From an uncultured Litoreibacter sp. (GTDB lineage: Bacteria; Pseudomonadota; Alphaproteobacteria; Rhodobacterales; Rhodobacteraceae), in the NCBI RefSeq assembly GCF_947501785.1, contig NZ_CANMXB010000001.1:62001-126000 (forward strand): a DNA stretch of 64,000 nucleotides, given 5' to 3'. The translations under genes and the position numbers were made by a program. Positions 31,766 to 47,619 of the stretch are shown here, piece by piece (the first letter of the stretch is position 1; each line of letters begins with the position of its first letter). The notes below the pieces were generated by a model. That model ran no database searches. It was not told the DNA's origin and saw only the letters and a program-made list of their open reading frames with translations.

Positions 31766-31850
31766 GCGCTGCGCGCCCGTGATGTTTTGCGTTCTTGAAG
31801 GGGCTTTGCCCCTTCGCCACGCGGGCAAATCCCCAGAGTGCTTGAAACCA
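31766..31850 (+). repeat. Dispersed intergenic repeat, copy B
   Basis: Same organisation as copies A and C: GCGCTGCGCGC lead, GTGATGTTTTGCGTTCTTG, then a hairpin AAGGGGCTTTGCCCCTT and CGCCACGCGGGC. Its tail (AGAGTGCTTGAAACCAAATG) differs from the AGCATATTTCCGGCAGAAAG tail of A and C. It separates the convergent ppx and dehydrogenase genes. Confidence 0.6.
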
Positions 31851-31858
31851 AATGGAGA

Positions 31859-32749
31859 CTAGCCGCGGGTCACGCCGTTGCGTTTTGCGACGTAGTCCAC
31901 AAGGTGCGGAACGTAGTCTTCAGCGCCGTCTCCACCTGCGGCATGGGCCAGCGCGAAACTGTTTTTGACCGCGTTGCCAATTGGGTTGGCCAGCGCCACC
32001 CCATCGGCCATGGCTTCGAGGTAGCGCATGTCCTTCAGCGCGTTGGTCAGCGTGAATTTATGGGCCTCTGCATTGCCTTCGACCGCGTAGCCCATGAACG
32101 TTTGATAGAAGCCGCAATCCATGCGCGAGCCGCGGATGACGCTGTCAAACTGGTTGGTGGTGATGCCGACTTTCTCGGACAGGGCAAGCGCTTCGGAATA
32201 CATCGCGGCGTAGCCCATCGCGAGGAAGTTGTTCAGCAGCTTCATTTTGTGACCCGCGCCGGAGGGGCCCATATGGACGATGGCGCCGGCCCAGGCCGCG
32301 ATGACGGGTTTGACGCGGGCAAATACGGCGTCGGGCGCGCCAACCATGGTGGCCAACTCACCTGCCTCTGCTTGCACAGGCGTGCCGCCCAAAGGGGCGT
32401 CTGCCATACCGAAGCCTGCGGCTTCGAGCCCGTCAGCCAACGCCATTGTGGAATTCGGATCGGAAGTGGAGCAATCGACGATGATCGCGTTCGGGGTCAG
32501 GTTCGGCATCAGCTCGGACACAATGGCCTCTACCTGAGGTGACCCCGGGGCGCAGATATGGATGATCGAGCAGGCGGCGATATCGGCCATGGAGGCAGCC
32601 TCTGTCGCACCTTTGGCGACGAGGTCCTCGACCGGCGCGCGGTTGCGATGGGCGATCACGGTGACGGGGTAGCCCGCCTTCAAGATGTTGCTGGCCATGC
32701 CGTGGCCCATCAGGCCGACGCCCACAAATCCGACTGTTTCCGAGGTCAT
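31859..32749 (-). CDS. NAD(P)-dependent beta-hydroxyacid dehydrogenase (HIBADH-like)
   Basis: A 296-residue oxidoreductase. The N-terminal Rossmann motif is VGFVGVGLMGHGMASNILKA, and the C-terminal helical domain carries the catalytic-lysine motif GAGHKMKLLNNFLAMG. The DAPLGGTPVQAEAGELA block is the substrate-binding signature of the family that includes 3-hydroxyisobutyrate, tartronate-semialdehyde and gamma-hydroxybutyrate dehydrogenases. The exact substrate cannot be told; GGTPVQAEAG differs from the more usual GGxxGAxxG. I chose ATG 32747-32749 after AGGAGCTTC. It is divergent from the sugar-dehydrogenase-like SDR, with 92 bases between the starts, so the two may share control. Confidence 0.85.
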   Translation of the reverse strand: MTSETVGFVGVGLMGHGMASNILKAGYPVTVIAHRNRAPVEDLVAKGATEAASMADIAACSIIHICAPGSPQVEAIVSELMPNLTPNAIIVDCSTSDPNSTMALADGLEAAGFGMADAPLGGTPVQAEAGELATMVGAPDAVFARVKPVIAAWAGAIVHMGPSGAGHKMKLLNNFLAMGYAAMYSEALALSEKVGITTNQFDSVIRGSRMDCGFYQTFMGYAVEGNAEAHKFTLTNALKDMRYLEAMADGVALANPIGNAVKNSFALAHAAGGDGAEDYVPHLVDYVAKRNGVTRG

Positions 32750-35005: not shown

Positions 35006-35965
35006 ATGCGCATAACCTGTCTGATCGCCTCCCTCTGCCTTGCTTTGCCAGCTCTGGCGCAAGGGCAGGACGCGGTTGCTGACAGGTTGGAACAGGCGTT
35101 TCGTGATTGGGCCGACACGCATGATGTGGCGCGCGGCGCTTTGGCCGCAACATACCAAGGCAACGTCGTCAGCCAGATCGGCATCGGCCAGCCGGCAGAC
35201 ACGCCGATGGAATTGGCGAGCCTGTCCAAGGCCATCACGGGCACATGCGCCATGTCGTTGATTGCGGGCGGTGACTGGCACGAGGCCACCACGACCGCCG
35301 ACGTGTTGGGGCAGGGACCTGATGTCACCGTCGGGCAGCTGATGACCCACACCAGCGGCTATGTTAACGACGCCACCCAAATGGCGATGCCCGCGATGCT
35401 GGATGCGCCTGATCACCCCGGCATCGTGGATGCGCTGCTGGAGCTCGGGCCGCCCGGCAAGGCGGGGACATATGTCTACAGCAACGAAAACTACGCCATT
35501 CTTGGACGAATGATTTCGGTCGAGACTGGTCAGACCTATGGCCGCGCCTGCGCCGACAGGGTCCTGCGGCCCGCCGGGGTGGAGGCGGAGGTGTCGCCGC
35601 GCACGGGCGCATTCGCGGCCTTTGGCGGCTGGGCCATGCCCGTGGCGGATTACGCCAAATTTCATGCCCACCACTTTGGCGAGGGCAGTATTCTGGGCCA
35701 AGCCCCGGAAGGCGCGCCCATGGCTGAGATGGGCGGCGGCGCGTTTTATGGTCCCGGCACCATTTGGCGCGCTTTTAGAGGCGGCCATAACTTCTGGCAT
35801 TTCGGGGCGCTTTGCTTCCCGGGCCGGATGAATACGGGCGCATTTGCGGTTCAGTGGCACGGTGGCTGGGGGGTGAGCGTCGCCTATAACGCTTGCGTGG
35901 ACTGGCCGGCCATGGCCGAACTTGACGGCGTGTTGGCGGCAGCGGTCTTTGGAGAACAAAAATGA
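35006..35965 (+). CDS. Secreted serine hydrolase, beta-lactamase/class C type
   Basis: A 319-residue protein with a signal peptide (residues 1-19, ending LAQG). The SxxK motif is visible at about residues 72-75 (MELASLSKAITGTC), and YSNENYAILGRM fits the YxN motif. The C-terminal third, with FRGGHNFWHFGALCFPGRMN, takes the place of the usual KTG-like region. It is a periplasmic beta-lactamase-fold hydrolase, but whether it cuts beta-lactams, D-amino-acid peptides or esters is not clear; class C-like esterases are common. It follows proS by 13 bases and overlaps the next gene's start by 4 bases. Confidence 0.8.
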   Translation: MRITCLIASLCLALPALAQGQDAVADRLEQAFRDWADTHDVARGALAATYQGNVVSQIGIGQPADTPMELASLSKAITGTCAMSLIAGGDWHEATTTADVLGQGPDVTVGQLMTHTSGYVNDATQMAMPAMLDAPDHPGIVDALLELGPPGKAGTYVYSNENYAILGRMISVETGQTYGRACADRVLRPAGVEAEVSPRTGAFAAFGGWAMPVADYAKFHAHHFGEGSILGQAPEGAPMAEMGGGAFYGPGTIWRAFRGGHNFWHFGALCFPGRMNTGAFAVQWHGGWGVSVAYNACVDWPAMAELDGVLAAAVFGEQK

Positions 35966-36585
35966 AAACGGTGTTGTGTTTCGGCGATAGTTTGACCTGG
36001 GGGTCACGCCCCGACGGCGGCGCGCGCCACAAATTCGAGGACCGTTGGCCCAATGTATTGCAGGCCGGTCTGGAGGGCGTGAACGTCATCAGCGACGGGC
36101 TTCGCGGACGCACGACCGCTATGGACCAGCATGCCAGCCCCGGCAACATGAACGGCGCCGCGCTATTGCCGTCGGCCCTGCACACGCATGCGCCTCTTGA
36201 TCTGGTGATCGTTTCCCTGGGCGCGAATGACGTTTACTGGGGGTTCCCACTGCGGCGCGCGGTGCGCGGGCTGGAGCATCTGGCAGAGATCGTGCGCCGC
36301 CATCCAATGCGTGTGCCCGATATAGCCCAACCAAAGGTGTTGCTGGTGATCCCCCAAGTGTTGGTGCCTTGCGACGACCCGCATGTCACTGCTGAGCTGC
36401 TGGCGGCCTCGCGGCAGTTCAGCGCCTTGGCCAAGGCCAAGGCCGATGACATCGGCGTCCCCTGGTTTGACGCAGGTAGCGTGGCGCAAAGCTCGCCCAT
36501 TGATGGCATCCATCTGGACGCGGAAAACACCCGCGCAATTGGTCAAGGGTTGGTGCCGGTTGTTCAAGAGCTGCTGGGGCCATGA
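35962..36585 (+). CDS. SGNH/GDSL-family hydrolase
   Basis: A 207-residue hydrolase. Block I is VLCFGDSLTWGSRPDGG with Ser10 as the nucleophile; block II is near NVISDGLRGRTTAMD; block III is SLGANDVYWG; block V is the Asp/His pair in SPIDGIHLDAENTRAIG. The family includes arylesterases, thioesterase/lysophospholipases and carbohydrate acetylesterases. No signal peptide is seen. Its start overlaps the stop of the serine hydrolase. The next gene begins 77 bases later and may use its own promoter. Confidence 0.85.
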   Translation: MKTVLCFGDSLTWGSRPDGGARHKFEDRWPNVLQAGLEGVNVISDGLRGRTTAMDQHASPGNMNGAALLPSALHTHAPLDLVIVSLGANDVYWGFPLRRAVRGLEHLAEIVRRHPMRVPDIAQPKVLLVIPQVLVPCDDPHVTAELLAASRQFSALAKAKADDIGVPWFDAGSVAQSSPIDGIHLDAENTRAIGQGLVPVVQELLGP

Positions 36586-36662: not shown

Positions 36663-38912
36663 ATGGGGCTTCGCAGGTATTTTCGCAAACAGTCAGACGA
36701 CGTCATCCAACCCGAAGAGCGCCGGATCATCTCCAAATGCGTGGCTCCCGGCGACGTTGTGTTTGATGTCGGCGCGCATCACGGGCTGTGGTCCAAGGCC
36801 GTGCTGGAACAGGTGGGTGACGTTGACCTGCATGTGTTCGAGGCCACAAAGGGATCCTACGAAAAAATCGTTGAACAACTGGGTGACAAGGGCACGATCA
36901 ACCACGCGGCGGCCTCCCATACGGACGGCGAGATTGTGTTCAACACTTACCGCGACGACGACCGGCTCAGCTCTATCTACCGGCGCACCAGCGTGGAGGA
37001 CGACCTGCTGCCCGCAGGGTTCGAGGCAAACGCGGTTCCCGCCGTGGCGCTGGACAGCTATTGGACCGACCCGAAGAAACAGATCAACCTGCTGAAGATC
37101 GACGTGGAAGGCGCTGAATATGACGTGCTGCGCGGCGCGAACCGGCTTTTGAAGGCCGGGCAGGTCGACTACATACAGTTCGAATATGGCGGCACGTTTG
37201 AAGATGCAGGATTCACTCTGGGCAACGTGTGGTCCTACCTGCGCCGGTCCGGCTATGCGGTGTTCAAGGTGGGCAAACGCAATTTCACCGAGATCGAGCG
37301 CTTCACGCCCGCGATGGAGGATTACCGTTACGCCAACCTGTTGGCGGTGCATGAACGGCTCCGCTCGCGGTTTGTCGGCAAGCCCGAAGATATCGTGCTC
37401 TATGTCGACAAGATGAAGCGCTACGGCTTCAAACCCAAGGGCGTGCTGCATGTGGGCGCGCATCAGGGGCAGGAACTGCCGACCTACCGCACCAACAAGA
37501 TGAGCCCGATTGTTTTTGTGGAGGCCAACCCCGAGCTGGCCGGCGCCTTGCGCGACAAGACCGCGGGCGAAGCGGATATTCATGTCGTCGAAGGTGCTGC
37601 ATCGGATAAGGCGGGCACCGCGACGTTCAACATTGCGTCAATGGATCAGAGCAGCTCGCTGCTGCCCCTGGCCAAACATGCCGAACTGTACCCCAAGATC
37701 ACCTTCGACAAGGAGATCGAGGTCCGCACCATGACACTGGACGCCGCCATGGCGGAAACCGGCGTTGACCCGGCCTCGGTCAACATGCTGACGATGGATA
37801 TTCAGGGCGCGGAACTGATGGCACTGCGCGGGGCCACCGAGACGCTGAAACATATCGACGCCATCCAGACCGAGATCAACTATGACGAGCTCTACGAAGG
37901 TTGCCCGCATATCAGTGATCTGGACGCCTTCCTGTACCCGCTGGGCTTTCTACGCATCAAGACGATGACCCCCTACGACAAAGGCTGGGGCGACGCGGTT
38001 TATGTGAAGGCCCCGATGATCACCAACTCGGTGCTTGGGTCCATGGGCCGGTTCGCCAACAAGGCGTTTCAATACATGTTTCTGCGCACCTATGCGGCGG
38101 AGCACGGGTTTGAATTTGCCAACCTGCCTTGGGAAGGGGACGACATGTATCACGTCCGCCCGGGCAAGGCGACCTTGCCCAAACCGGGCCGGACCGTAGA
38201 GCAAACCAAATACGGGTTTGACGATTGCGACATCGTTAATGCGCCGGAGCCTTGGGCGGATGCCGATCTGAAGGGCTTTTTTCAGTACAACATGAAATAT
38301 TACGCGCCCTACCGTGCGGAGCTTGAGGCGGAGTTCGCCCATAAAGGCGTCTACCTTGAGGCAGGGCAGGCGATGCGGGTCGGGTTTGACGCCTTGGCCG
38401 GACCGGTGGCTGTGGTGCATCTACGGCGCGGCGATTATGGCACTGATATTTTCTTCCTGCCGCCCAACGACTGGTACGTCGATTGGCTGCGCGGGTTGCA
38501 GGCGAAAGAGCCGACCCTGCAGGTCTACATCGCTACCGACGACCCGACCGCGGCGGGCAATGATTTTGACGAGTTTGCCCTTGTGACGTCCGATCAGCTC
38601 GACCTGCCGCCTGTGGATCACGGGTTCTTCTACGATTTCACCGCGATGCGGCTGGCGGATCATGTCGCGATTGCCAATTCCAGCTTCTCCTTTTTGGCCG
38701 CGGCGTTGAACAGCACGGCGACGTCGACCGTCCGGCCGGACCCCGAGGCGGGCAAGCTGGTGGCGTTTGAGCCGTGGTCGTCAGACCCGTTGATCCGCAG
38801 CCACAAGGCCGAGGAGATGGGCGAGGATTACATGAGCGCCCGCGCCAAATCGCGCACCAAATACAAGACGCGCAAATTCATCAAAGGTTTGCTGCCGTGG
38901 GGCGGCAAGTGA
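36663..38912 (+). CDS. Three-domain fusion: two FkbM methyltransferase domains and a GT11-like domain
   Basis: A 749-residue protein with three recognisable parts. Residues about 20-235 are an FkbM-type methyltransferase (VVFDVGAHHGLWS; LLKIDVEGAEYDVLRGA). Residues about 250-450 are a second FkbM domain (GVLHVGAHQGQELPTY; MLTMDIQGAELMALRGA). Residues about 453-735 resemble a GT11 alpha-1,2-fucosyltransferase-like domain: GSMGRFANKAFQYMFLR stands where the GxGNQMFQ motif is, and VVHLRRGDYGTD is the donor-binding H-x-R-x-G/D motif. The C-terminus is basic. Likely role: sugar transfer and O-methylation on a polysaccharide or LPS part. I chose ATG 36663; GTG 36660 adds one residue. It overlaps a GT25 gene. 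Confidence 0.8.
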   Translation: MGLRRYFRKQSDDVIQPEERRIISKCVAPGDVVFDVGAHHGLWSKAVLEQVGDVDLHVFEATKGSYEKIVEQLGDKGTINHAAASHTDGEIVFNTYRDDDRLSSIYRRTSVEDDLLPAGFEANAVPAVALDSYWTDPKKQINLLKIDVEGAEYDVLRGANRLLKAGQVDYIQFEYGGTFEDAGFTLGNVWSYLRRSGYAVFKVGKRNFTEIERFTPAMEDYRYANLLAVHERLRSRFVGKPEDIVLYVDKMKRYGFKPKGVLHVGAHQGQELPTYRTNKMSPIVFVEANPELAGALRDKTAGEADIHVVEGAASDKAGTATFNIASMDQSSSLLPLAKHAELYPKITFDKEIEVRTMTLDAAMAETGVDPASVNMLTMDIQGAELMALRGATETLKHIDAIQTEINYDELYEGCPHISDLDAFLYPLGFLRIKTMTPYDKGWGDAVYVKAPMITNSVLGSMGRFANKAFQYMFLRTYAAEHGFEFANLPWEGDDMYHVRPGKATLPKPGRTVEQTKYGFDDCDIVNAPEPWADADLKGFFQYNMKYYAPYRAELEAEFAHKGVYLEAGQAMRVGFDALAGPVAVVHLRRGDYGTDIFFLPPNDWYVDWLRGLQAKEPTLQVYIATDDPTAAGNDFDEFALVTSDQLDLPPVDHGFFYDFTAMRLADHVAIANSSFSFLAAALNSTATSTVRPDPEAGKLVAFEPWSSDPLIRSHKAEEMGEDYMSARAKSRTKYKTRKFIKGLLPWGGK

Positions 38913-39733
38913 CACCCATCTACTACATCAATCTGGACCGCGTTCCCGAACGGCGGACCTTCATGGATGACCAGTTCGCGGCCCAGGGGCTGCGGGCAGA
39001 ACGTATCTCGGCGGTCGACGCCTTCGACAACCCACAACCCGCTGAATACTGCCCAGCCGGGTGGCTAAGCCGCTGGAGCCTGACCACATCCGAAGTCGCC
39101 TGTTTCGAAAGCCACCGGGTCGCATGGCGGGCGGTCCGTGATGGCGAGGCGCCATTCGGGGTCATCATGGAAGATGACGCGATCCTGAGTGCAGGGTTTG
39201 GCGATGCATTGGCCTCCCTTTCCGAAGCCGGGCGGCTGGCCGACGTCATCAAGCTGGATGGGGCCAATCAACCCCGCCGGTTGGGCCCTGTTGTCGATAT
39301 GGGCGGCGTGTCTCTGCGGCCGTTGATCCAGACCATCGGCAGCGCCGCTGCCTACGCGCTGAGCCGGGAAAGCGCGGCCCGGTTGGAAAAGCGCGCAGCG
39401 CGCTATTGCGACCATCTCGATGATTTCATCTTCACGCCCAGCCGTGATTGGCGGCCAATGCAGATGACGCCTGCCGTCGCGGTGCAGGGGATGTTTATCG
39501 AGGACGAGGCCAGCGACCGGGCTGACAGCGTCGACAACAGCGAACGCACCTCCGACACTCGCATCAACGCCGATGACGGGCGGGGGCCGCCTTTATACCG
39601 CCTTTCAAAAGAGCTGAAACGCGGCGGGCGCAAGCTGGGCTGGAAGCTCTGGGGTGATGGTCGCCTAATAGCCAATGGCGGGCTGATCGGATGCCCGCCA
39701 CTGGCCGATGATTTGGGTCAGTACCGCCGCTAA
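38909..39733 (+). CDS. Glycosyltransferase family 25 protein
   Basis: A 274-residue protein starting at GTG 38909, in a 4-base overlap with the stop of the fusion gene. The N-terminus, TPIYYINLDRVPERRTFMDD, is the GT25 (LPS core galactosyltransferase / procollagen-type) start. The SEVACFESHRVAWRA and GVIMEDDAILSAGF motifs hold the DxD-like EDD metal site. About 200 residues form the family domain; the last 60 residues are polar and basic. It probably adds a sugar to LPS or capsule. Its stop overlaps the stop of the convergent cpdB gene in a shared CTAA. Confidence 0.85.
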   Translation: MTPIYYINLDRVPERRTFMDDQFAAQGLRAERISAVDAFDNPQPAEYCPAGWLSRWSLTTSEVACFESHRVAWRAVRDGEAPFGVIMEDDAILSAGFGDALASLSEAGRLADVIKLDGANQPRRLGPVVDMGGVSLRPLIQTIGSAAAYALSRESAARLEKRAARYCDHLDDFIFTPSRDWRPMQMTPAVAVQGMFIEDEASDRADSVDNSERTSDTRINADDGRGPPLYRLSKELKRGGRKLGWKLWGDGRLIANGGLIGCPPLADDLGQYRR

Positions 39734-41688
39734 AGCGAGATACGGAACCGGGCGAACCCGTCCGGCCCGTCCCCGGCTTCCTCGATTGTGACGCCGGGTA
39801 CATCCGTTGCATAGGCTTTCGCCGCTGGCCCTGTGTCAAACAACACGGTCGTTCCCTCCATCGGTTTGAAGGTCCAGTTGGCGTCTGCGCGCGGGCTGAT
39901 CGTGCCTTTCTCGACGATGTAGCGCACGATGACGTCGCGGTTCGTGTCGGGGCCTTCAAAGATGGTCGTATCGGGCGTGGCCCCGGGGAAAGACCCACCG
40001 CCGCCCGCGCGGTAGTTGTTGGTCGCAATGATGAATTCCGCATTCATATCAAGCGGTTCGCCATTGTAGGTGAGGTTCACAATCCGCGAGGCATCCTCGT
40101 TCAGCAACACGCCCTTTGGGTCGTATTTCGACGGCTGCGACAGGTCGATCTGGTATTCGACCCCGTCGATCACATCGAAATTGTAGCTGGGGAAATCCGG
40201 GTTCAGCAGCACCACGTCCTGCGCGCCGGGCTCGACCTGATTGAAGATACCGGCGGAGCGTTCCAGCCAGTCCTTCACTTGGGTCCCCGTCACCCGCACC
40301 GCGCGGGCGGTGTTGGGGTAGAGATACAGGTCCGAGACGTTCTTGATCGCCACATCGCCTTCGGGCACGTCAGTGAAATACTCCGGCCCGCCGCGACCAC
40401 CGGCCTTGAATGGTGCCGCAGCCGACAGGATCGGCAGGCCCTCATGTTCGGTGCCCTTCATCATCTGCTCGATATACCAAAGCTGGGCAATCGACACGAT
40501 TTGCACGGACGGGTCATCCGCCACCAAGGCGAAGTAGCTGTGCAGCGGCGCGTCGGTTTTGCCAACTGCGCGGCGCACATAGGCCAGCGTCTCGTCATGC
40601 TCTTGCTGCACAGAGGCAAGCACCGCTTCATCGCTTTCCACCAGCGCCGTGGTCGAACGATCCTCGTTGCGCTTGGAAATGGGCCGCGCCTCGGATTCAG
40701 CAGAAACCACACGCCATTCATTGCCGTCCTTCTCGACCAGCAGGTCGATCAGCCCCATATGGCTGCCCCAGAAGCCCCCCATCACCGCAGGCGTACCCAT
40801 CAACGTGCCCGCATCCAGGTCGGTGCCGGTGAAGTTCTCGTAGGCAGGTGAGGGGAAGACCAGATGGCTGTGGCCAGTCAAAATGGCGTCGACGCCGTCC
40901 AGACCCGCCAGCGGCACCGCCGCGTTTTCCATTCCGTCCTCCGCCGTCGGTGCGCCGATACCGGAATGCGACAGAGCGACGATAATGTCCGCGCCTTGTT
41001 CCTTCATCTGCGGCAGGTAGGCCTGCGCGGTCTCGATGACGTCGCGGGCCTGAACGTTGCCTTCCAGATGGCGGCGGTCCCAGCCCATGATCTGCGGCGG
41101 CACGAAGCCGATGAGGCCGACCTTGATGTCATGTTCGACCCCCGCGCCGTCTGTGACCTTATGATCGAGGATCACATAGGGCGGGATCAGCGTTTTGTCC
41201 TTGGTGGGGTCGCTGCCCATTTCGGTGACCACGTTGGCATTCACCACCGGGAAATTCGCGCCCGCAAGCGCCTTCATCAGGAACTCCAGCCCGTAGTTGA
41301 ATTCATGGTTGCCCAGCGTGGAGGCATCAAAGCCCAGCGTGTTCATCGCCTCGATCACCGGGTGCAGGTCGCCTTCCTTCATGCCCCGCTCGTAGGCGAT
41401 GTAGTCGCCCATCGGGTTGCCCTGCAGGAAGTCGCCATTGTCGATCAGCAGCGAATTGGTGGCCTCGTCCCGGATCGCCTTGATCAGGGAGGCGGTGCGG
41501 GCCAGCCCAACGGTGTCGCGGGGTTTGTCGGCGTAATAGTCGTAAGGGAAAACATGCACATGCAGGTCGGTGGTCTCCATGATCCGCAGATGTGCTTGGT
41601 TGGTGGCGGCGCGGGCCGAGAACGGGTGCAGCGCGATCAGCCCTGCGGTCCCTGCGACAAAGCCACGACGGGTGAGTTGAATGGTCAT
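39730..41688 (-). CDS. cpdB: Periplasmic 2',3'-cyclic-nucleotide 2'-phosphodiesterase/3'-nucleotidase
   Basis: A 652-residue exported enzyme. It starts MTIQLTRRGFVAGTAGLIAL, a twin-arginine (Tat) signal (TRRGFVAG), followed by the metallophosphatase domain (MTTDLHVHVF-like METTDLHVHV, NGDFLQGNPMGDY, TLGNHEFNYG, LTGHSHLVFP) and the C-terminal 5'-nucleotidase domain with ATNNYRAGGGGSFPG. It hydrolyses 2',3'-cyclic nucleotides and 3'-nucleotides in the periplasm to scavenge phosphate and nucleosides. I chose ATG 41686-41688; codons further upstream lack family similarity. The Tat signal rather than a Sec signal is notable for this family. Confidence 0.92.
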   Translation of the reverse strand: MTIQLTRRGFVAGTAGLIALHPFSARAATNQAHLRIMETTDLHVHVFPYDYYADKPRDTVGLARTASLIKAIRDEATNSLLIDNGDFLQGNPMGDYIAYERGMKEGDLHPVIEAMNTLGFDASTLGNHEFNYGLEFLMKALAGANFPVVNANVVTEMGSDPTKDKTLIPPYVILDHKVTDGAGVEHDIKVGLIGFVPPQIMGWDRRHLEGNVQARDVIETAQAYLPQMKEQGADIIVALSHSGIGAPTAEDGMENAAVPLAGLDGVDAILTGHSHLVFPSPAYENFTGTDLDAGTLMGTPAVMGGFWGSHMGLIDLLVEKDGNEWRVVSAESEARPISKRNEDRSTTALVESDEAVLASVQQEHDETLAYVRRAVGKTDAPLHSYFALVADDPSVQIVSIAQLWYIEQMMKGTEHEGLPILSAAAPFKAGGRGGPEYFTDVPEGDVAIKNVSDLYLYPNTARAVRVTGTQVKDWLERSAGIFNQVEPGAQDVVLLNPDFPSYNFDVIDGVEYQIDLSQPSKYDPKGVLLNEDASRIVNLTYNGEPLDMNAEFIIATNNYRAGGGGSFPGATPDTTIFEGPDTNRDVIVRYIVEKGTISPRADANWTFKPMEGTTVLFDTGPAAKAYATDVPGVTIEEAGDGPDGFARFRISL

Positions 41689-41888
41689 AGACGAATCCCC
41701 CTTGGTTAATTTTCTTGGAATGAACGCGCCGAGTGTAATGCCGTTGTGACAAAACACGAAATGGCGGGATGCCTTACCGGCTGGCCTTTGCCGAAAAAGA
41801 TGCGTTGTTGATCGAATAATAGGCGACCCCCAAGCGTTACCTTCTTAACCCCGGCACTTCCGCGTGGGGAATTTCTGGGAGGACCCTC

Positions 41889-42509: not shown

Positions 42510-43409
42510 CTATGCGCCGCCCTCGCGCGACACCGCGCCGACCCCCAAAAACACGAACGCTTCTCGCAAGACGCGTTCGGGCAGCTCTTCGGCCAGATAA
42601 TGCGCGCCGGGCAGCGATTTGCCGGTGACGGTCTCCGCCCTGAGCTTCCACAGTTCCAGACAGTCGAAATAGGCCTCGATCGCGCCATGCGCGCCCCAAA
42701 GCACATGGATGGGGCAGGTCAGCTTTCGGGCTCCGTCCGCGTCGTCATGGGCGATATCGATGGTCGCCGCGGCGCGATAGTCCTCGCACGACGCATGGAT
42801 CACCGCCTTGTTGGAAAACGCGTTGTGATAGGCATCGCGCGCCTCGTCGGAGAACGGCCCGTCGCCCGCCGCGCCGAAGGTGCATTTCTTGTTCCAGAAG
42901 TCACGCGGGTCAGCCTCGATCATCCGCTCGGGCAGGGGATAGGGCTCGGTCAGGTAGAACCAATGCGCGTAGGTGCGCGCAAAACCCAGCGTGGTGTTTG
43001 CGTACATCTCCCGCGTGGGCGCAATGTCGAGGATGATCATCTTGCGCACCGCGTAGGGGCTGTCCATGCCCAACCGGTGCGCCACCCGCGCGCCGCGGTC
43101 ATGGGCCATGATGTCGAAAGTCTTGAACCCGAAGCCGCGCATCAACGCCACCATATCGGCGGCCATCTCGCGCTTGGACATTTGGCTGTGGTCGTCGCGG
43201 GTGCGTGGGCAGGTAGACGCCCCGTAGCCGCGCAGATCGGGCGCAATCACCGTGAACCGCTTTGCCAGATCGGGGGCCATCTTGTGCCACATCACATGGG
43301 TTTGCGGGTACCCGTGCAGCAACAGCAGCGGCGGACCCGACCCTCCGACCCGGCCATGAATTGTAACGTCGCCGATGACGTGGGCGAAACTCTTGAAACC
43401 TTCGAACAT
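42510..43409 (-). CDS. Alpha/beta hydrolase, haloacetate-dehalogenase-like
   Basis: A 299-residue alpha/beta-fold hydrolase. Motifs include the oxyanion region LLLLHGYPQTHVMWHKMAPD and the nucleophile region MAHDRGARVAHRLGMDSP, in which Asp takes the place of the usual Ser as in haloacetate dehalogenases and epoxide hydrolases. CEDYRAAATIDIAHDDADGA also matches the fluoroacetate dehalogenase group. A late His is expected near PGAHYLAEELPERV. Hydrolytic dehalogenation is likely but not proven; many such homologues are epoxide hydrolases. I chose ATG 43407-43409, with the upstream residues lacking similarity. It is divergent from the Lol genes. Confidence 0.8.
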   Translation of the reverse strand: MFEGFKSFAHVIGDVTIHGRVGGSGPPLLLLHGYPQTHVMWHKMAPDLAKRFTVIAPDLRGYGASTCPRTRDDHSQMSKREMAADMVALMRGFGFKTFDIMAHDRGARVAHRLGMDSPYAVRKMIILDIAPTREMYANTTLGFARTYAHWFYLTEPYPLPERMIEADPRDFWNKKCTFGAAGDGPFSDEARDAYHNAFSNKAVIHASCEDYRAAATIDIAHDDADGARKLTCPIHVLWGAHGAIEAYFDCLELWKLRAETVTGKSLPGAHYLAEELPERVLREAFVFLGVGAVSREGGA

Positions 43410-43513
43410 GGGGTAACGATAAGCGGTTTGCCGCCCCGTGCAAGGGGCGGGTGCCAACTTGACCTTCGCGTCCTTAAGGCGCACATCTGGTTTCAGGCAA
43501 GCAGGAGACCAAC

Positions 43514-44803
43514 GTGGCCAAGATCACGGGAACCAAAACCGCCCCCTTTGCGGGGTTCGAGTGGATGATCGCATGGCGCTACATCCGCGCCAAACGAGCC
43601 GAGGGCGGCGTGTCGGTCATGACTTGGATTTCGCTCATTGGCATCACGCTGGCCGTGGCCGCGCTGATCATCACCTTGGCCGTGCGGTCGGGGTTCCGCT
43701 ACGAATTTGTTGATACGATCTTGGGCGCGAACGCCCATATCACCGTCTATGACGCGGGCGCGAATGCGGGTTCGGCGCGGGTGATTTCGGATTATGACGC
43801 GCGGGCGAAAGCCATTTCCACCGCAGACGGCGTGGTCCGCGCCGCGCCTTTGGTCAAGGGCCAGGTCATGGCCACAGGCCGTGGCCGCAACGCAGGCGTC
43901 GAAGTGTTCGGCATCCGCGCCAGCGATTTCGAGGGCATCCGCCGCGTGATTGAACCGCAAGAGGCCTATGGCGACTGGTCGCGCTTTGACGAGGGCATTG
44001 CCATCGGGTCCGGCGTGGCGCGTGAACTAGGCGTGGGGCCGGGCGACAAGATCCGGCTGATCTCGCCTAACGGGACGAAAACGCCGTTTGGCACCTCGCC
44101 GCGCGTTGCTGCGTTCGAGGTGGTCTACGTCTTCCGCGTCGGCCGCTACGACATTGATCGAACGCGCGTCTACATGCCGTTTGAAAAGGCGCAGGATTAC
44201 TTCAACCGCGAGGGGTTGGCCGACGAAATTGAAGTCATTCTGGACGACCCGGAAAACATCGCAAAAGGCGAAATCGAGGTCATGAAAGTCGCAGGTAACA
44301 ACGTGCTGCTTTGGACATGGCGTGACTCGTCAGGTGCGTTCCTGCAGGCGCTGGAGATGGAGGATAACGTCATGTTCCTCATCCTCGGCATCCTTGTCCT
44401 CATTGCATCCATGAACATCGTCTCAGGTCTGATTATGCTGGTGAAGAACAAGGGTCGCGACATCGGCATCCTGCGCACGATGGGGCTGTCTGAGGGCTCC
44501 GTGCTGCGCGTCTTCTTCATTTGCGGCGCGGGCATTGGCGTTATTGGCACCATCGCGGGGCTGATCCTCGGTTGCCTCTTCGCCATCTACATTGACCAGA
44601 TTTTCGACGTGGTGAATTACATCGCGGGCGGTGGGGTCTGGGACCCGTCCGTGCGGATGATTTCCAAGCTACCGGCACGGCTGGAAATGGGCGATGTCAT
44701 GTCCGCCATCTCCCTGTCGCTGTTTCTCAGCTTCGTCGTTACCATCTTCCCCGCCCGCCGCGCGGCGCGGATGAACCCGGTGGAGGCCTTGCGCTATGAG
44801 TGA
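43514..44803 (+). CDS. lolC: LolC/LolE-type lipoprotein-releasing permease
   Basis: A 429-residue inner-membrane subunit of the LolCDE complex, which releases lipoproteins from the inner membrane to LolA. It has a first membrane helix near residues 38-60 ([18 protein letters not shown]), a large periplasmic domain (about 60-270), and three C-terminal helices beginning [19 protein letters not shown], with the signature [20 protein letters not shown]. It starts at GTG 43514 after AGGAGACC. It ends inside the start of lolD. Alphaproteobacteria usually have one fused LolC/E-type permease, so the C/E label is arbitrary. Confidence 0.92.
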
Positions 44804-45757: not shown

Positions 45758-46702
45758 TCAGGCGTGTTTGGTAAACAATGCGTCCGCAGCCTCGTAGACC
45801 TGCTCGCGCACAGCTTCGCATTCCATGATGATCTCGTGCTCACCGTCTTCGATGATCACCAGCTCGCCGTTTGGCCAACGGCCCATGCGGTCATGGATGG
45901 CGTCTTTGTCCACGATCCGCTCATTCGTGCCGAGATAGGTCAGGCACGGCACATTCGGCGTTGGATGCGCAGCAAGCGCGCGGCATTCGCGCAGGGCGTG
46001 GTTGAGCCAGCTGAGCGTCGGGCCGCCAAGGGCGAGGTCGGGGTATTTGGTGACCTGCCGTTTCATGTAGTCGAACATCTCGGGGTCGGTGGTCAGCATG
46101 TTGTCGTCAAACGGGTTGGACAGCACATATGTCTCCGGCAGCGTGCCCGGCGAGATAATGTTGCCCAGCCCAAGGTTATGCGCCGCCGTCGAGGCGACCC
46201 AGCCCAGGGACCGTTTGCTGTTGGTCATCGCGATGCCCCACATCGGGCCGGTGAAGACGGCGGAGGTGACCGTCAGGTCTTCGACCAACGCACGCAAGCC
46301 GATGCAGCCGCCCATGGAATGGGCAAACAGCGACAGCGGTTTGGGCAGCGCGAGGTCTTCGACCAATCCGAGCAGCGTGGCCACGTCGGTTTGGTAGTCT
46401 TTGAAGGACCCCACATGGCCCAAGGCGCGGTCAGGCAGCAGGCGGTCCGCCAAGCCTTGGCCCCGCCAGTCGATGACCACCACGGCGTATCCGCGCGCGG
46501 TGAAGCCAGCGGCGGCACGGCCGTATTTCTCGATAAATTCGGTGCGGCCGGGGAACAGCAGCACCGTTCCCTTGGTGCCGGTCTCGGCTCCCCAAACGCC
46601 TGCACGGATTTTGACCCCGTCAGGACAGGTCAGCCAATAGGCTTTGCCATCGGCGGGGCCATCGGCCACGTCCGCATGCAGAGGCGCAGGGGTCAGCGTC
46701 AC
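45758..46702 (-). CDS. Alpha/beta hydrolase, lysophospholipase-like
   Basis: A 314-residue serine hydrolase of the lysophospholipase L2/monoacylglycerol lipase type. The nucleophile motif is LFAHSMGGCIGLRALVED, and TVLLFPGRTEFIEKYG and VIDWRGQGLADRLLPD are typical of this group. The late His is near EDGEHEIIMECEAVREQV. It starts at GTG 46700-46702, with a 4-base overlap with the stop of the SCP2 gene, so the pair is translated together. It may act on lysophospholipids or other acyl esters. No signal peptide is seen. Confidence 0.85.
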   Translation of the reverse strand: MTLTPAPLHADVADGPADGKAYWLTCPDGVKIRAGVWGAETGTKGTVLLFPGRTEFIEKYGRAAAGFTARGYAVVVIDWRGQGLADRLLPDRALGHVGSFKDYQTDVATLLGLVEDLALPKPLSLFAHSMGGCIGLRALVEDLTVTSAVFTGPMWGIAMTNSKRSLGWVASTAAHNLGLGNIISPGTLPETYVLSNPFDDNMLTTDPEMFDYMKRQVTKYPDLALGGPTLSWLNHALRECRALAAHPTPNVPCLTYLGTNERIVDKDAIHDRMGRWPNGELVIIEDGEHEIIMECEAVREQVYEAADALFTKHA

Positions 46703-46986
46703 GACAGGACGGCACCCAGTTTCATGGCTTGGCCCATGTCGCCATCGACGGCGAGCTTGCCGGACATGAAGGCTGCGGTTGGGTTCAGGTCACCGTCGAG
46801 GATGGCCTCGAAGGTTTCGGCGTCTGCCGACATGGTGCATTCCGCGCCTTCGTCGCCTGCGCGCACGCCGTTTGCGTCAACCATAATGGCGCCTTCGCCT
46901 TCGATGGCGAACTTGACCGAGCCGTCAAAGCCGCCGTCCAATTTTGCCGACAATGCTTCTACCGCTTTGGTAATGACGTCGCTCAT
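46699..46986 (-). CDS. SCP2 sterol-binding domain protein
   Basis: A 95-residue single-domain protein. The SCP2 pattern is visible: VKFAIEGEGAIMVDANGV, the ADAETFEAILDGDLNPTAAF region, and the closing SGKLAVDGDMGQAMKLGAVL. Such stand-alone SCP2 proteins form a hydrophobic pocket for fatty acyl chains or acyl-CoA. The gene is first of a two-gene unit with the lysophospholipase-like hydrolase, so it may present lipid ligands to it; this is inferred from coupling. The start ATG 46984-46986 follows AGGAGATTG. Confidence 0.88.
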   Translation of the reverse strand: MSDVITKAVEALSAKLDGGFDGSVKFAIEGEGAIMVDANGVRAGDEGAECTMSADAETFEAILDGDLNPTAAFMSGKLAVDGDMGQAMKLGAVLS

Positions 46987-47058
46987 GTCTCAATCTCCTA
47001 AAAATGTGAGTGGCCCGCTCTCGATTTTTGCTGCGGACCCGCTAGAGTTACAGACGTT

Positions 47059-47619
47059 ATGAAGTTTTCAACACATATCCTCAACACTGTCGTTGCGGCA
47101 TTTTTGCTTACGGCACCGGTATCTGGGCCGGCATTCGCCGACGAGGCCGAGCTCAACAAGCTTTTTGACAGCCTTGCCGAGCCCGAACAAGAAAATTGGG
47201 AAAGCATAGAGAAGGCGATTTGGCGGGAATGGTCCGATAGCGGATCCAAGGCGATGAACCTGCTGCTCAATCGCGGGCGGCGCGCGATGAGCGACGGCAA
47301 GATTGAAGAGGCCATCGACCATTTCACCGCGCTGACCGACCATGCGCCGGATTTTGCCGAAGGCTGGAACATGCGCGCGACCGCCTATTTCGGGGCGGGG
47401 CATTACGGGCTGTCGATCGCCGATATCCAACGCACGTTGGCTTTGAACCCCCGGCACTTCGGCGCCATGCAGGGTTTGGGGCGCATGTTGGAGGAATTGG
47501 ATGACAGCCAAAACGCGCTGACCGCCTACCAGGCGGCTTACGCTATACATCCCCACCGGCCCGGCCTAAAAGAGGCGGTAGAGAGGCTGGAACAACAGGT
47601 GTCCGGCCAAGATTTGTAA
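47059..47619 (+). CDS. Secreted TPR-repeat protein
   Basis: A 186-residue protein with a signal peptide (residues 1-27, ending AFA-D). The rest has two to three tetratricopeptide repeats, with AEGWNMRATAYFGAGHYGLS and HFGAMQGLGRMLEELDDSQN as the clearest helices. It is likely a periplasmic scaffold. It is divergent from the SCP2 gene with 72 bases between and is followed by the helicase gene after 39 bases. The partner is unknown. Confidence 0.82.
   Translation: MKFSTHILNTVVAAFLLTAPVSGPAFADEAELNKLFDSLAEPEQENWESIEKAIWREWSDSGSKAMNLLLNRGRRAMSDGKIEEAIDHFTALTDHAPDFAEGWNMRATAYFGAGHYGLSIADIQRTLALNPRHFGAMQGLGRMLEELDDSQNALTAYQAAYAIHPHRPGLKEAVERLEQQVSGQDL

What the first reader, a model, noticed from the sequence alone, without database searches (positions are those of the whole stretch)
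36663..39733. FkbM-FkbM-GT11-like three-domain fusion coupled to a GT25 glycosyltransferase
Seen: one 749-residue frame holds two separate FkbM-type SAM domains (DVGAHHG..KIDVEGAE and HVGAHQG..MDIQGAE) and a C-terminal domain with GRFANKAFQYMF and HLRRGDYG, like GT11 fucosyltransferases. The next gene, starting at GTG in a 4-base overlap, is a GT25 transferase. Known: FkbM domains O-methylate sugars or small molecules; GT11 transfers fucose and GT25 acts in LPS core. Inference: a compact machine that builds and methylates one glycan, possibly on LPS or capsule. Two tandem FkbM domains plus a glycosyltransferase in one chain is not an arrangement I know.
Basis: partly seen in the sequence, partly recalled or inferred. 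Interest (0 to 1): 0.75.

Follow-up and report, generated by a model that had tools for sequence, protein, structure and literature searches.

The report
Two-methyltransferase, one-fucosyltransferase fusion enzyme
A marine bacterium carries one protein that joins two sugar-methylating enzymes to a fucose-adding type of enzyme, and the same three parts recur in many bacteria and, unfused, in some phages, which suggests that they work together to finish one sugar chain.

Summary
Observation confirmed. One 749-aa frame (36663-38912) holds two FkbM (PF05050) domains and a C-terminal glycosyltransferase; a GT25 gene (38909-39733) follows in a 4-base overlap. The model is confident (pLDDT 92.9). Domain 2 resembles an FkbM crystal structure, the last third GDP-fucose transferases (NodZ, POFUT, FUT8) with an HxRR-D motif invariant in 48 of 48 relatives. 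It misses the PF01531 (GT11) cut-off, so it is GT11-like.

The arrangement is recurrent but unnamed: 67 of 120 listed relatives show it, 8 with a partial first domain, in several phyla. Modules also occur permuted, partial, or as neighbouring genes, including in a predicted phage contig beside GDP-fucose genes. In a relative of the same genus the same slot holds GT2 + stand-alone GT11 + GT25, a swap at the domain border.

Best reading: the GT transfers L-fucose, the FkbM domains O-methylate the product, GT25 acts on the same glycan. Donor, target and activity are inferred. No paper describing the fusion was found in the open-licence library. New variant of a known kind.

The parts
36663..37370 (+). 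FkbM domain 1 (F1), residues 1-236; DVGAHHG, acidic E60, KIDVEGAE
   Evidence: PF05050 70.3 bits, cut-off 22.7; D35, G37, E60, D147 invariant in 48 of 48 relatives
37371..38027 (+). FkbM domain 2 (F2), residues 237-455; HVGAHQG, VEANP, MDIQGAE
38028..38909 (+). C-terminal GT11-like domain with the GDP-fucose-transferase fold, residues 456-749; GRFANK, HLRRGDYG, NSSFSF
38909..39733 (+). GT25 glycosyltransferase gene, GTG start overlapping the fusion's stop (GTGA)
   Evidence: PF01755 72.4 bits, cut-off 24; overlap read; a GT25 homologue follows the fusion in 8 of 9 alphaproteobacterial fusion loci
35962..36585 (+). GDSL hydrolase gene, left border of the variable slot
   Evidence: PF13472 73.1 bits; left flank of the slot in G017, G020 and G005
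39730..41757 (-). 5'-nucleotidase-type phosphoesterase gene, right border of the slot
   Evidence: PF02872 76.7 bits and PF00149 42.8 bits; 92% identical in G017 and G020, 85% in G005

Best explanation
The 749-aa protein is a three-activity enzyme that finishes one glycan. Its C-terminal GT-B-type domain transfers a 6-deoxyhexose, most likely L-fucose from GDP-L-fucose, to an acceptor sugar. Its two FkbM domains use SAM to O-methylate the product at two positions, most likely on the added fucose. The GT25, whose start codon overlaps the fusion's stop, adds or supplies the neighbouring sugar. The pair is a two-gene 'decorate and cap' unit whose parts can be fused, permuted, separated or exchanged: in a relative of the same genus the two FkbM domains are replaced by a GT2 gene at the same chromosomal position. 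Shown: the domains, the predicted fold, conserved motifs, recurrent linkage, the alternative content of the slot, and an adjacent gmd-fcl pair (GDP-fucose synthesis) in the genome. Inferred: all activities, the donor, methylation of the fucose itself, the order of steps, and the carrier (LPS, capsule or protein).
For: Domains. Structure: pLDDT 92.9, pTM 0.91; GT third like NodZ, POFUT1/2, FUT8 and AtFUT1, F2 like FkbM 2py6. SAM-site and HxRR-D residues invariant in 48 of 48. GDP-fucose supply: own genome has gmd (583 bits, cut-off 415) beside fcl (523 bits, cut-off 500); in Roseobacter GAI101 fcl-like (474 bits, below the cut-off of 500) and gmd (566 bits) lie just beyond the fusion + GT25, on the opposite strand. 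Predicted phage contig L146 carries gmd (552 bits), fcl-like (441), GT10, FkbM, FkbM, GT11 (86.7 bits, over cut-off), GT7C-like, GHMP kinase, epimerase and GT25 in one same-strand run, with three unscanned ORFs between. L138 has F2, F1 and gmd (442 bits) consecutively; L129 has F2, F1, an unscanned ORF, gmd-like (319, below cut-off) and fcl-like (440). Module logic: of 120 listed relatives 67 are F1-F2-GT, 1 F1-F1-F2-GT, 23 F2-GT, 13 GT-F2, 9 GT-F1-F2, 6 F1-F2, 1 F1-F1-F2. Cyanophage S-SRM01 has FkbM, FucT, GT2, FucT and GT25 in a row (FkbM, both FucT and GT25 confirmed as homologues). Precedents: PBCV-1 A064R is one chain with two GT domains and one methyltransferase domain acting in sequence, and A061L adds a second methyl (PMC9614988, passages). 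In M. tuberculosis three separate enzymes O-methylate a terminal fucosyl at positions 2, 4 and 3 (PMC3594219, abstract).
Against: No activity is shown. GT11 Pfam cut-off not met. gmd presence does not discriminate: 13 of 21 genomes of the genus have it, although only own and G017 hold a close GT domain; no background rate was measured outside the genus and the 14 control genomes. gmd over cut-off in 21 of 24 fusion genomes tested; the misses are Pseudodonghicola flavimaris (the first 38 positions of gmd lie at the ends of two contigs), a Planctomycetota MAG, and an Okeania MAG with a below-cut-off match. fcl at E <= 1e-80 in 24 of 26 genomes, over its cut-off in 8 (misses G062 and G077). Within the fetched flanks only 4 of 33 fusion loci have a gmd- or fcl-type hit (L039, L047, L065, L078; L047 at 25% identity). 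FkbM catalytic residues are not established here. None of the cyanobacterial fusion loci has a GT25 hit. G017's GT2 has no match to the GT2 genes of S-SRM01 at E <= 1e-3.
Confidence: 0.55

Rival explanations
1. Same enzyme type but another GDP-sugar donor (for example GDP-mannose, GDP-rhamnose or GDP-colitose), so the product is not a methylfucose.
For: The PF01531 score is weak. The Planctomycetota MAG G072 has no gmd match at E <= 1e-80. gmd and fcl are mostly not next to the fusion (4 of 33 loci). A fold does not fix the sugar.
Against: The glycosyltransferase folds listed are all fucosyltransferases; gmd and fcl-type genes lie beside the cassette in GAI101 and beside the FkbM genes in phage contigs L146 and L129.
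Confidence: 0.2
2. The FkbM domains methylate the acceptor glycan (for example a chain end), not the fucose; the fusion only co-localises steps.
For: F1 has a sub-threshold match to V. cholerae RfbT (whole protein 19.2 bits, cut-off 27.9); that RfbT 2-O-methylates an O-antigen sugar is recalled. In G017 a GT2 gene stands in place of the FkbM pair while GT11 and GT25 stay.
Against: None direct; A064R and the PGL fucose case make methylation of the newly added sugar the closer precedent.
Confidence: 0.2
3. Only one FkbM domain is active; the other is structural or binds the substrate.
For: Relatives with F2 but no called F1 are frequent: 23 F2-GT and 13 GT-F2 of 120. All 13 GT-F2 rows leave 159-180 unassigned residues in which a diverged domain could lie.
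Against: The SAM-site residues named (D35, G37, E60, D147, E149, G150, E152; G265, G269, E287, D379, G382, E384) are kept in 45-48 of 48, and mean identity is alike for F1 (0.524) and F2 (0.538).
Confidence: 0.2
4. The fusion is an accidental, selectively neutral join of unrelated genes.
For: In G017 the GT stands alone beside GT2 and GT25, and GT rows without a called FkbM domain are scattered among fusions (5 changes).
Against: The same three domains recur fused in several phyla, in another order (GT-F1-F2, one origin, support 98), and as neighbouring genes; the distances of the three domains correlate at 0.90.
Confidence: 0.04

Closest known systems
FkbM-family methyltransferases (PF05050 / TIGR01444), structure 2py6
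   Different: Two tandem copies joined to a glycosyltransferase; their substrate is unknown
GT11 / GDP-fucose transferase fold (PF01531; NodZ, POFUT, FUT8)
   Same: HxRR-D motif, fold, NSSFSF region; 28 of 48 relatives hit PF01531 at E <= 1e-3
   Different: The window protein scores 15.8 bits against a 23.9 cut-off; linkage and donor untested
PBCV-1 A064R (Rha-transferase, Rha-transferase, methyltransferase in one chain), with A061L
   Same: One chain that adds sugars and methylates the product in sequence (PMC9614988, passages)
   Different: Two GT domains and one methyltransferase, rhamnose not fucose; homology to the present protein not tested
M. tuberculosis fucosyl O-methyltransferases Rv2954c, Rv2955c, Rv2956
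   Same: Several methyltransferases act one after another on a single terminal fucosyl (PMC3594219, abstract)
   Different: Separate genes, a glycolipid; homology to FkbM not tested here
GT25 (PF01755), LPS-type glycosyltransferases
   Same: Downstream gene scores 72.4 bits against a cut-off of 24; EDD motif in the sequence (its role recalled)
   Different: Coupled to the fusion; not in an LPS core locus in the stretch scanned

Membership tests
FkbM methyltransferase family (PF05050) | Profile score over the gathering cut-off, for each domain | tested here: met
   70.3 and 63.2 bits against 22.7
FkbM methyltransferase family (PF05050) | Conserved SAM-binding motif and acidic residue (roles recalled) | tested here: met
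   D35, G37, E60 in F1 and G265, E287, D379 in F2 invariant in 48 of 48
FkbM methyltransferase family (PF05050) | SAM-dependent O-methylation | not testable with these tools
   Needs an assay
GT11 (PF01531) | Profile score over the gathering cut-off | tested here: not met
   15.8 bits against 23.9; 28 of 48 relatives of the same architecture reach E <= 1e-3
GT11 (PF01531) | HxRRxD donor-site motif (motif recalled) | tested here: met
   H586, R588, R589, D591 invariant in 48 of 48
GDP-fucose transferase fold | Fold shared with solved fucosyltransferases | tested here: met
Alpha-1,2-fucosyltransferase | Uses GDP-fucose, makes an alpha-1,2 linkage | not testable with these tools
   Own genome has gmd and fcl, which is only consistent
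GT25 (PF01755), downstream gene | Profile score over the cut-off | tested here: met
   72.4 bits against 24; match covers profile positions 1-123 of 199
LPS / capsule biosynthesis locus | Gene lies among polysaccharide genes | tested here: not met
   Genes scanned in window 27930-50349 are not polysaccharide genes or are unassigned; the rest of the window was not scanned. Polysaccharide or GT4 genes lie near the fusion in L039, L042 and L046

The most novel reading that the evidence does not exclude
These proteins form an unnamed class of single-chain capping enzymes that add fucose and di-O-methylate it, working as a plug-in system: bacteria and marine phages draw on the same small set of modules (FkbM pair, GT11, GT2, GT25, gmd/fcl) by fusion, permutation and domain-border swapping, which re-writes a surface epitope in one step, for example methylated cap against extra sugar in two species of one genus at the same locus.
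Probability: 0.35. Interest if true: 0.65.

Novelty: new variant of a known kind. Interest (0 to 1): 0.5.

Why it matters
FkbM-type methyltransferases are common in glycan loci and many have no known substrate (general knowledge, recalled). A family in which FkbM domains are physically joined to, or sit beside, a fucosyltransferase-like domain names a testable substrate for them. The slot in this genus offers two close relatives, one with the methylating half and one with another glycosyltransferase in its place, so the role of sugar O-methylation could be tested by comparing them. Related sets in phage genomes suggest that the cap may matter in phage-host interactions (inference).

Tried and rejected
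Frameshift or assembly artefact: rejected, since the frame recurs near full length in many separate records. Only one FkbM domain, or no GT fold: rejected. Sequence search of the PDB: no useful match, best E 0.054. Foldseek on the whole model: many alignments span domains with large rmsd, so I used the second look instead. Recent tandem duplication of F1 and F2: not supported, 30% identity over 107 columns. gmd as a discriminating marker: uninformative within the genus. L-fucose salvage enzyme (PF07959) as another donor source: over the cut-off in 0 of 4 genomes. Trace of the modules in the two slots without the cassette: none found. Phage records: 67 of 50,697 match, none over 80% of the protein. 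Plasmids: 59 of 72,556 match, 2 over 80% of the protein; one is an unannotated Neorhizobium replicon (45% identity, residues 97-735, not followed up), the other Azospirillum ramasamyi with the parts in separate genes. No F1-F2-GT frame in the 25 IMG/VR loci; L125 has a weak F2 trace with a GT in one 650-aa frame. Literature: FkbM + fucosyltransferase + glycosyltransferase, 0 papers; 'FkbM family methyltransferase' + glycosyltransferase, 6 papers, listing only; cyanophage + FkbM + glycosyltransferase, 0; two looser searches showed 10 of 63 and 12 of 23 papers, none of the shown ones with FkbM; two searches showed 25 of 196 and 15 of 179 as listings, of which I opened only the giant-virus review. 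The library holds open-licence PMC papers only.

Limits of counts: one search lists 120 of 149 hits and scored only the 7996 candidates sharing most words; candidate length was limited to 0.55-1.75 times the query, so the census favours fusions. A1 holds 48 of these, chosen by me as near full length. Architecture uses a 15-bit floor for proteins and 30 bits for loci; 8 of the 67 F1-F2-GT rows have F1 under 150 residues. Searches were given 27 and 26 locus ids, covering 25 and 24 of the 33 F1-F2-GT loci, plus two loci with a stand-alone GT. The one-clade test used 37 of 198 rows, and the group was chosen after the first tree; of its five 'stand-alone' rows P0126 has 474 residues and a 28-bit F1 trace. 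GT25 start sites were partly chosen by me.
Full report
OBSERVATION. The frame 36663-38912 encodes 749 residues from ATG (750 from the GTG one codon upstream). Pfam and NCBIfam each place two FkbM stretches in it. Cut into thirds, F1 (1-236) scores 70.3 bits and F2 (237-455) 63.2 bits on PF05050 (cut-off 22.7), while the last third scores 15.8 bits on PF01531 (cut-off 23.9). F1 and F2 share 30% identity over 107 columns, so they are not a recent duplication. The GT25 gene begins at GTG 38909 within GTGA and scores 72.4 bits on PF01755. Its end overlaps by four bases the end of a convergent phosphoesterase gene (39730-41757).

RECURRENCE. Of 149 hits to the whole protein (itself included), 120 are listed. 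Their domain orders, called against the window's own domains, are 67 F1-F2-GT (8 with F1 under 150 residues), 1 F1-F1-F2-GT, 23 F2-GT, 13 GT-F2, 9 GT-F1-F2, 6 F1-F2 and 1 F1-F1-F2. In genome records, the best 77 distinct loci were kept out of 159 stretches that encode a relative; 33 of the 77 hold F1-F2-GT, two of them with a second GT. Their record titles name, among others, Roseobacter, Pseudodonghicola, Aestuariivita, Phaeobacter, Tropicibacter, Geobacteraceae, Okeania, Tychonema, Microcoleus, Planktothrix, Planctomycetota and Phycisphaerales. Where a source names such a protein, the name is 'FkbM family methyltransferase'.

LINKAGE. A GT25 homologue lies directly downstream (about -9 to +11 bases) in 9 of the 33 fusion loci: 8 of the 9 named alphaproteobacterial ones (L039-L045, L048; L046 is the miss) and an Akkermansiaceae MAG cut at its contig edge. 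It also follows the stand-alone GT11 in uncultured Litoreibacter 909-j2 (L049) and in Oricola (L083). The genes around the pair differ between carriers, so the pair moves as a unit (inference). In Roseobacter GAI101 the pair is followed, on the opposite strand, by fcl-like (474 bits, cut-off 500), gmd (566, cut-off 415), a protein resembling exopolysaccharide transport/chain-length proteins (below cut-off) and a GT4. Within the fetched flanks, however, only 4 of 33 fusion loci show a gmd- or fcl-type hit. The window's own genome has gmd and fcl side by side about 2.56 Mb along the contig.

SEPARATE GENES IN BACTERIA. Paenibacillus flagellatus (L086) has a GT gene next to an F2 gene with an fcl-like gene just upstream (288 bits, below cut-off); a Paenibacillaceae MAG (L082) has GT, F2 and F1 in separate genes of one locus; Azospirillum halopraeferens (L071) has an F1-F2 gene and a separate GT gene.

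THE SLOT. The genus is called Litoreibacter here because G017's contig matches the record 'uncultured Litoreibacter sp. isolate 909-j2'. Of its 21 genomes, only the window's holds the fusion, and only G017 has another close GT domain; weak GT-only matches exist in G010 and G014. Both flanks of the slot lie on one contig in four genomes: own and G017, where it is filled, and G020 (about 90 bases) and G005 (818 bases), where no module is detected (the small ORFs of the G005 slot were not scanned). In G017 the slot holds GT2 (PF00535), a 305-aa stand-alone GT11-like protein (79% identical to the fusion's last third) and GT25 (72%). DNA similarity to the window resumes at window 38013, residue about 451, the F2/GT border. 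So the FkbM pair and a GT2 gene are alternatives at the same place. In the GT tree, rows without a called FkbM domain lie scattered among fusions: 5 changes, and one clade is rejected with p-AU 1.7e-5 (group chosen after the first tree; one of the five rows, P0126, has an F1 trace). Loss of the FkbM pair is the simpler direction (inference). The permuted GT-F1-F2 form has one origin (support 98). The distances of the three domains correlate at 0.897-0.905 among 48 proteins, as expected of long joint inheritance; relatedness is not corrected for.

PHAGES. Among 25 IMG/VR loci, none holds F1-F2-GT, but six have F1 and F2 in neighbouring frames (L129, L133, L137, L138, L139, L146). L146 reads gmd (552 bits, over cut-off), fcl-like (441, cut-off 500), GT10, an unscanned ORF, FkbM, FkbM, GT11 (86.7 bits, over cut-off), GT7C-like (23.1, cut-off 23), GHMP kinase, two unscanned ORFs, epimerase, GT25. 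The F1/F2/GT adjacency is partly selected by the search; the gmd, fcl and GT25 neighbours are not. Cyanophage S-SRM01 has FkbM, fucosyltransferase, GT2, fucosyltransferase and GT25 in a row, with an annotated NodZ-like gene nearby. Its FkbM is 36%, its fucosyltransferases 22% and 28%, and its GT25 28% identical to the window's modules; G017's GT2 finds no match there at E <= 1e-3.

MECHANISM. The most economical reading is one active unit: fucose transfer, two O-methylations, and a GT25 step on the same glycan. The donor is supported by fold, motif and some gmd/fcl neighbours, but gmd presence alone does not discriminate: 13 of 21 genomes of the genus have it, and 21 of 24 fusion genomes tested. 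Of the three exceptions, one has the start of gmd at contig ends, one is a Planctomycetota MAG, and one has only a below-cut-off match. fcl reaches E <= 1e-80 in 24 of 26 genomes, 8 over its cut-off. Which hydroxyls are methylated, in which order, and on what carrier are not known.

COMPARISON. Single-chain enzymes that both add and methylate sugars exist: PBCV-1 A064R (PMC9614988, passages). Sequential O-methylation of a terminal fucosyl by separate enzymes exists in M. tuberculosis (PMC3594219, abstract). A chain with two FkbM domains and a fucosyltransferase-like domain was not found in print with the searches, within an open-licence library. Verdict: a real, widespread architecture for which I found no functional description; a new variant of a known kind.

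Noticed in passing
L146:1670-11617 (IMG/VR contig): A predicted viral contig carries gmd, fcl-like, GT10, two FkbM, GT11, GT7C-like, GHMP kinase, epimerase and GT25 genes in one run, with three unscanned ORFs between: a rich fucosylation and methylation set.
   Followed up: partly
L150:1336-8867 (Synechococcus phage S-SRM01): Annotated NodZ-like, FkbM, two alpha-1,2-fucosyltransferase, GT2 and GT25 genes close together.
   Followed up: partly
L083:3276-9735 (Oricola nitratireducens): Two separate FkbM genes, two GT2, a stand-alone GT11 and a GT25 in one locus: a similar set unfused in another alphaproteobacterium.
   Followed up: partly
P0097, P0102 and 11 further GT-F2 proteins: All 13 GT-F2 proteins leave 159-180 residues between GT and F2 that match none of the window's domains: perhaps a diverged third module.
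   Followed up: no
L051, L068, L072 and other loci: Much longer open frames (about 1,600-2,300 residues) contain the F2-GT or F1-F2-GT block plus unscanned parts; some listed relatives carry TPR, GT2, GT4-type or PF13844 domains in the precomputed Pfam column.
   Followed up: no
window 31838-32542, 42600-43568 and 45764-47062: Three ORFs with no Pfam match at the thresholds used; the first two have counterparts in G017.
   Followed up: no
L039:5050-7716 (Roseobacter GAI101): An 888-aa protein with a Hint domain and RTX-type calcium-binding repeats lies just upstream of the fusion; whether it is a glycosylation target is unknown.
   Followed up: no
L151:8016-11647 (Azospirillum ramasamyi plasmid): F1-F2 as one gene and the GT part as a separate gene nearby, among further annotated methyltransferases and glycosyltransferases.
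   Followed up: partly
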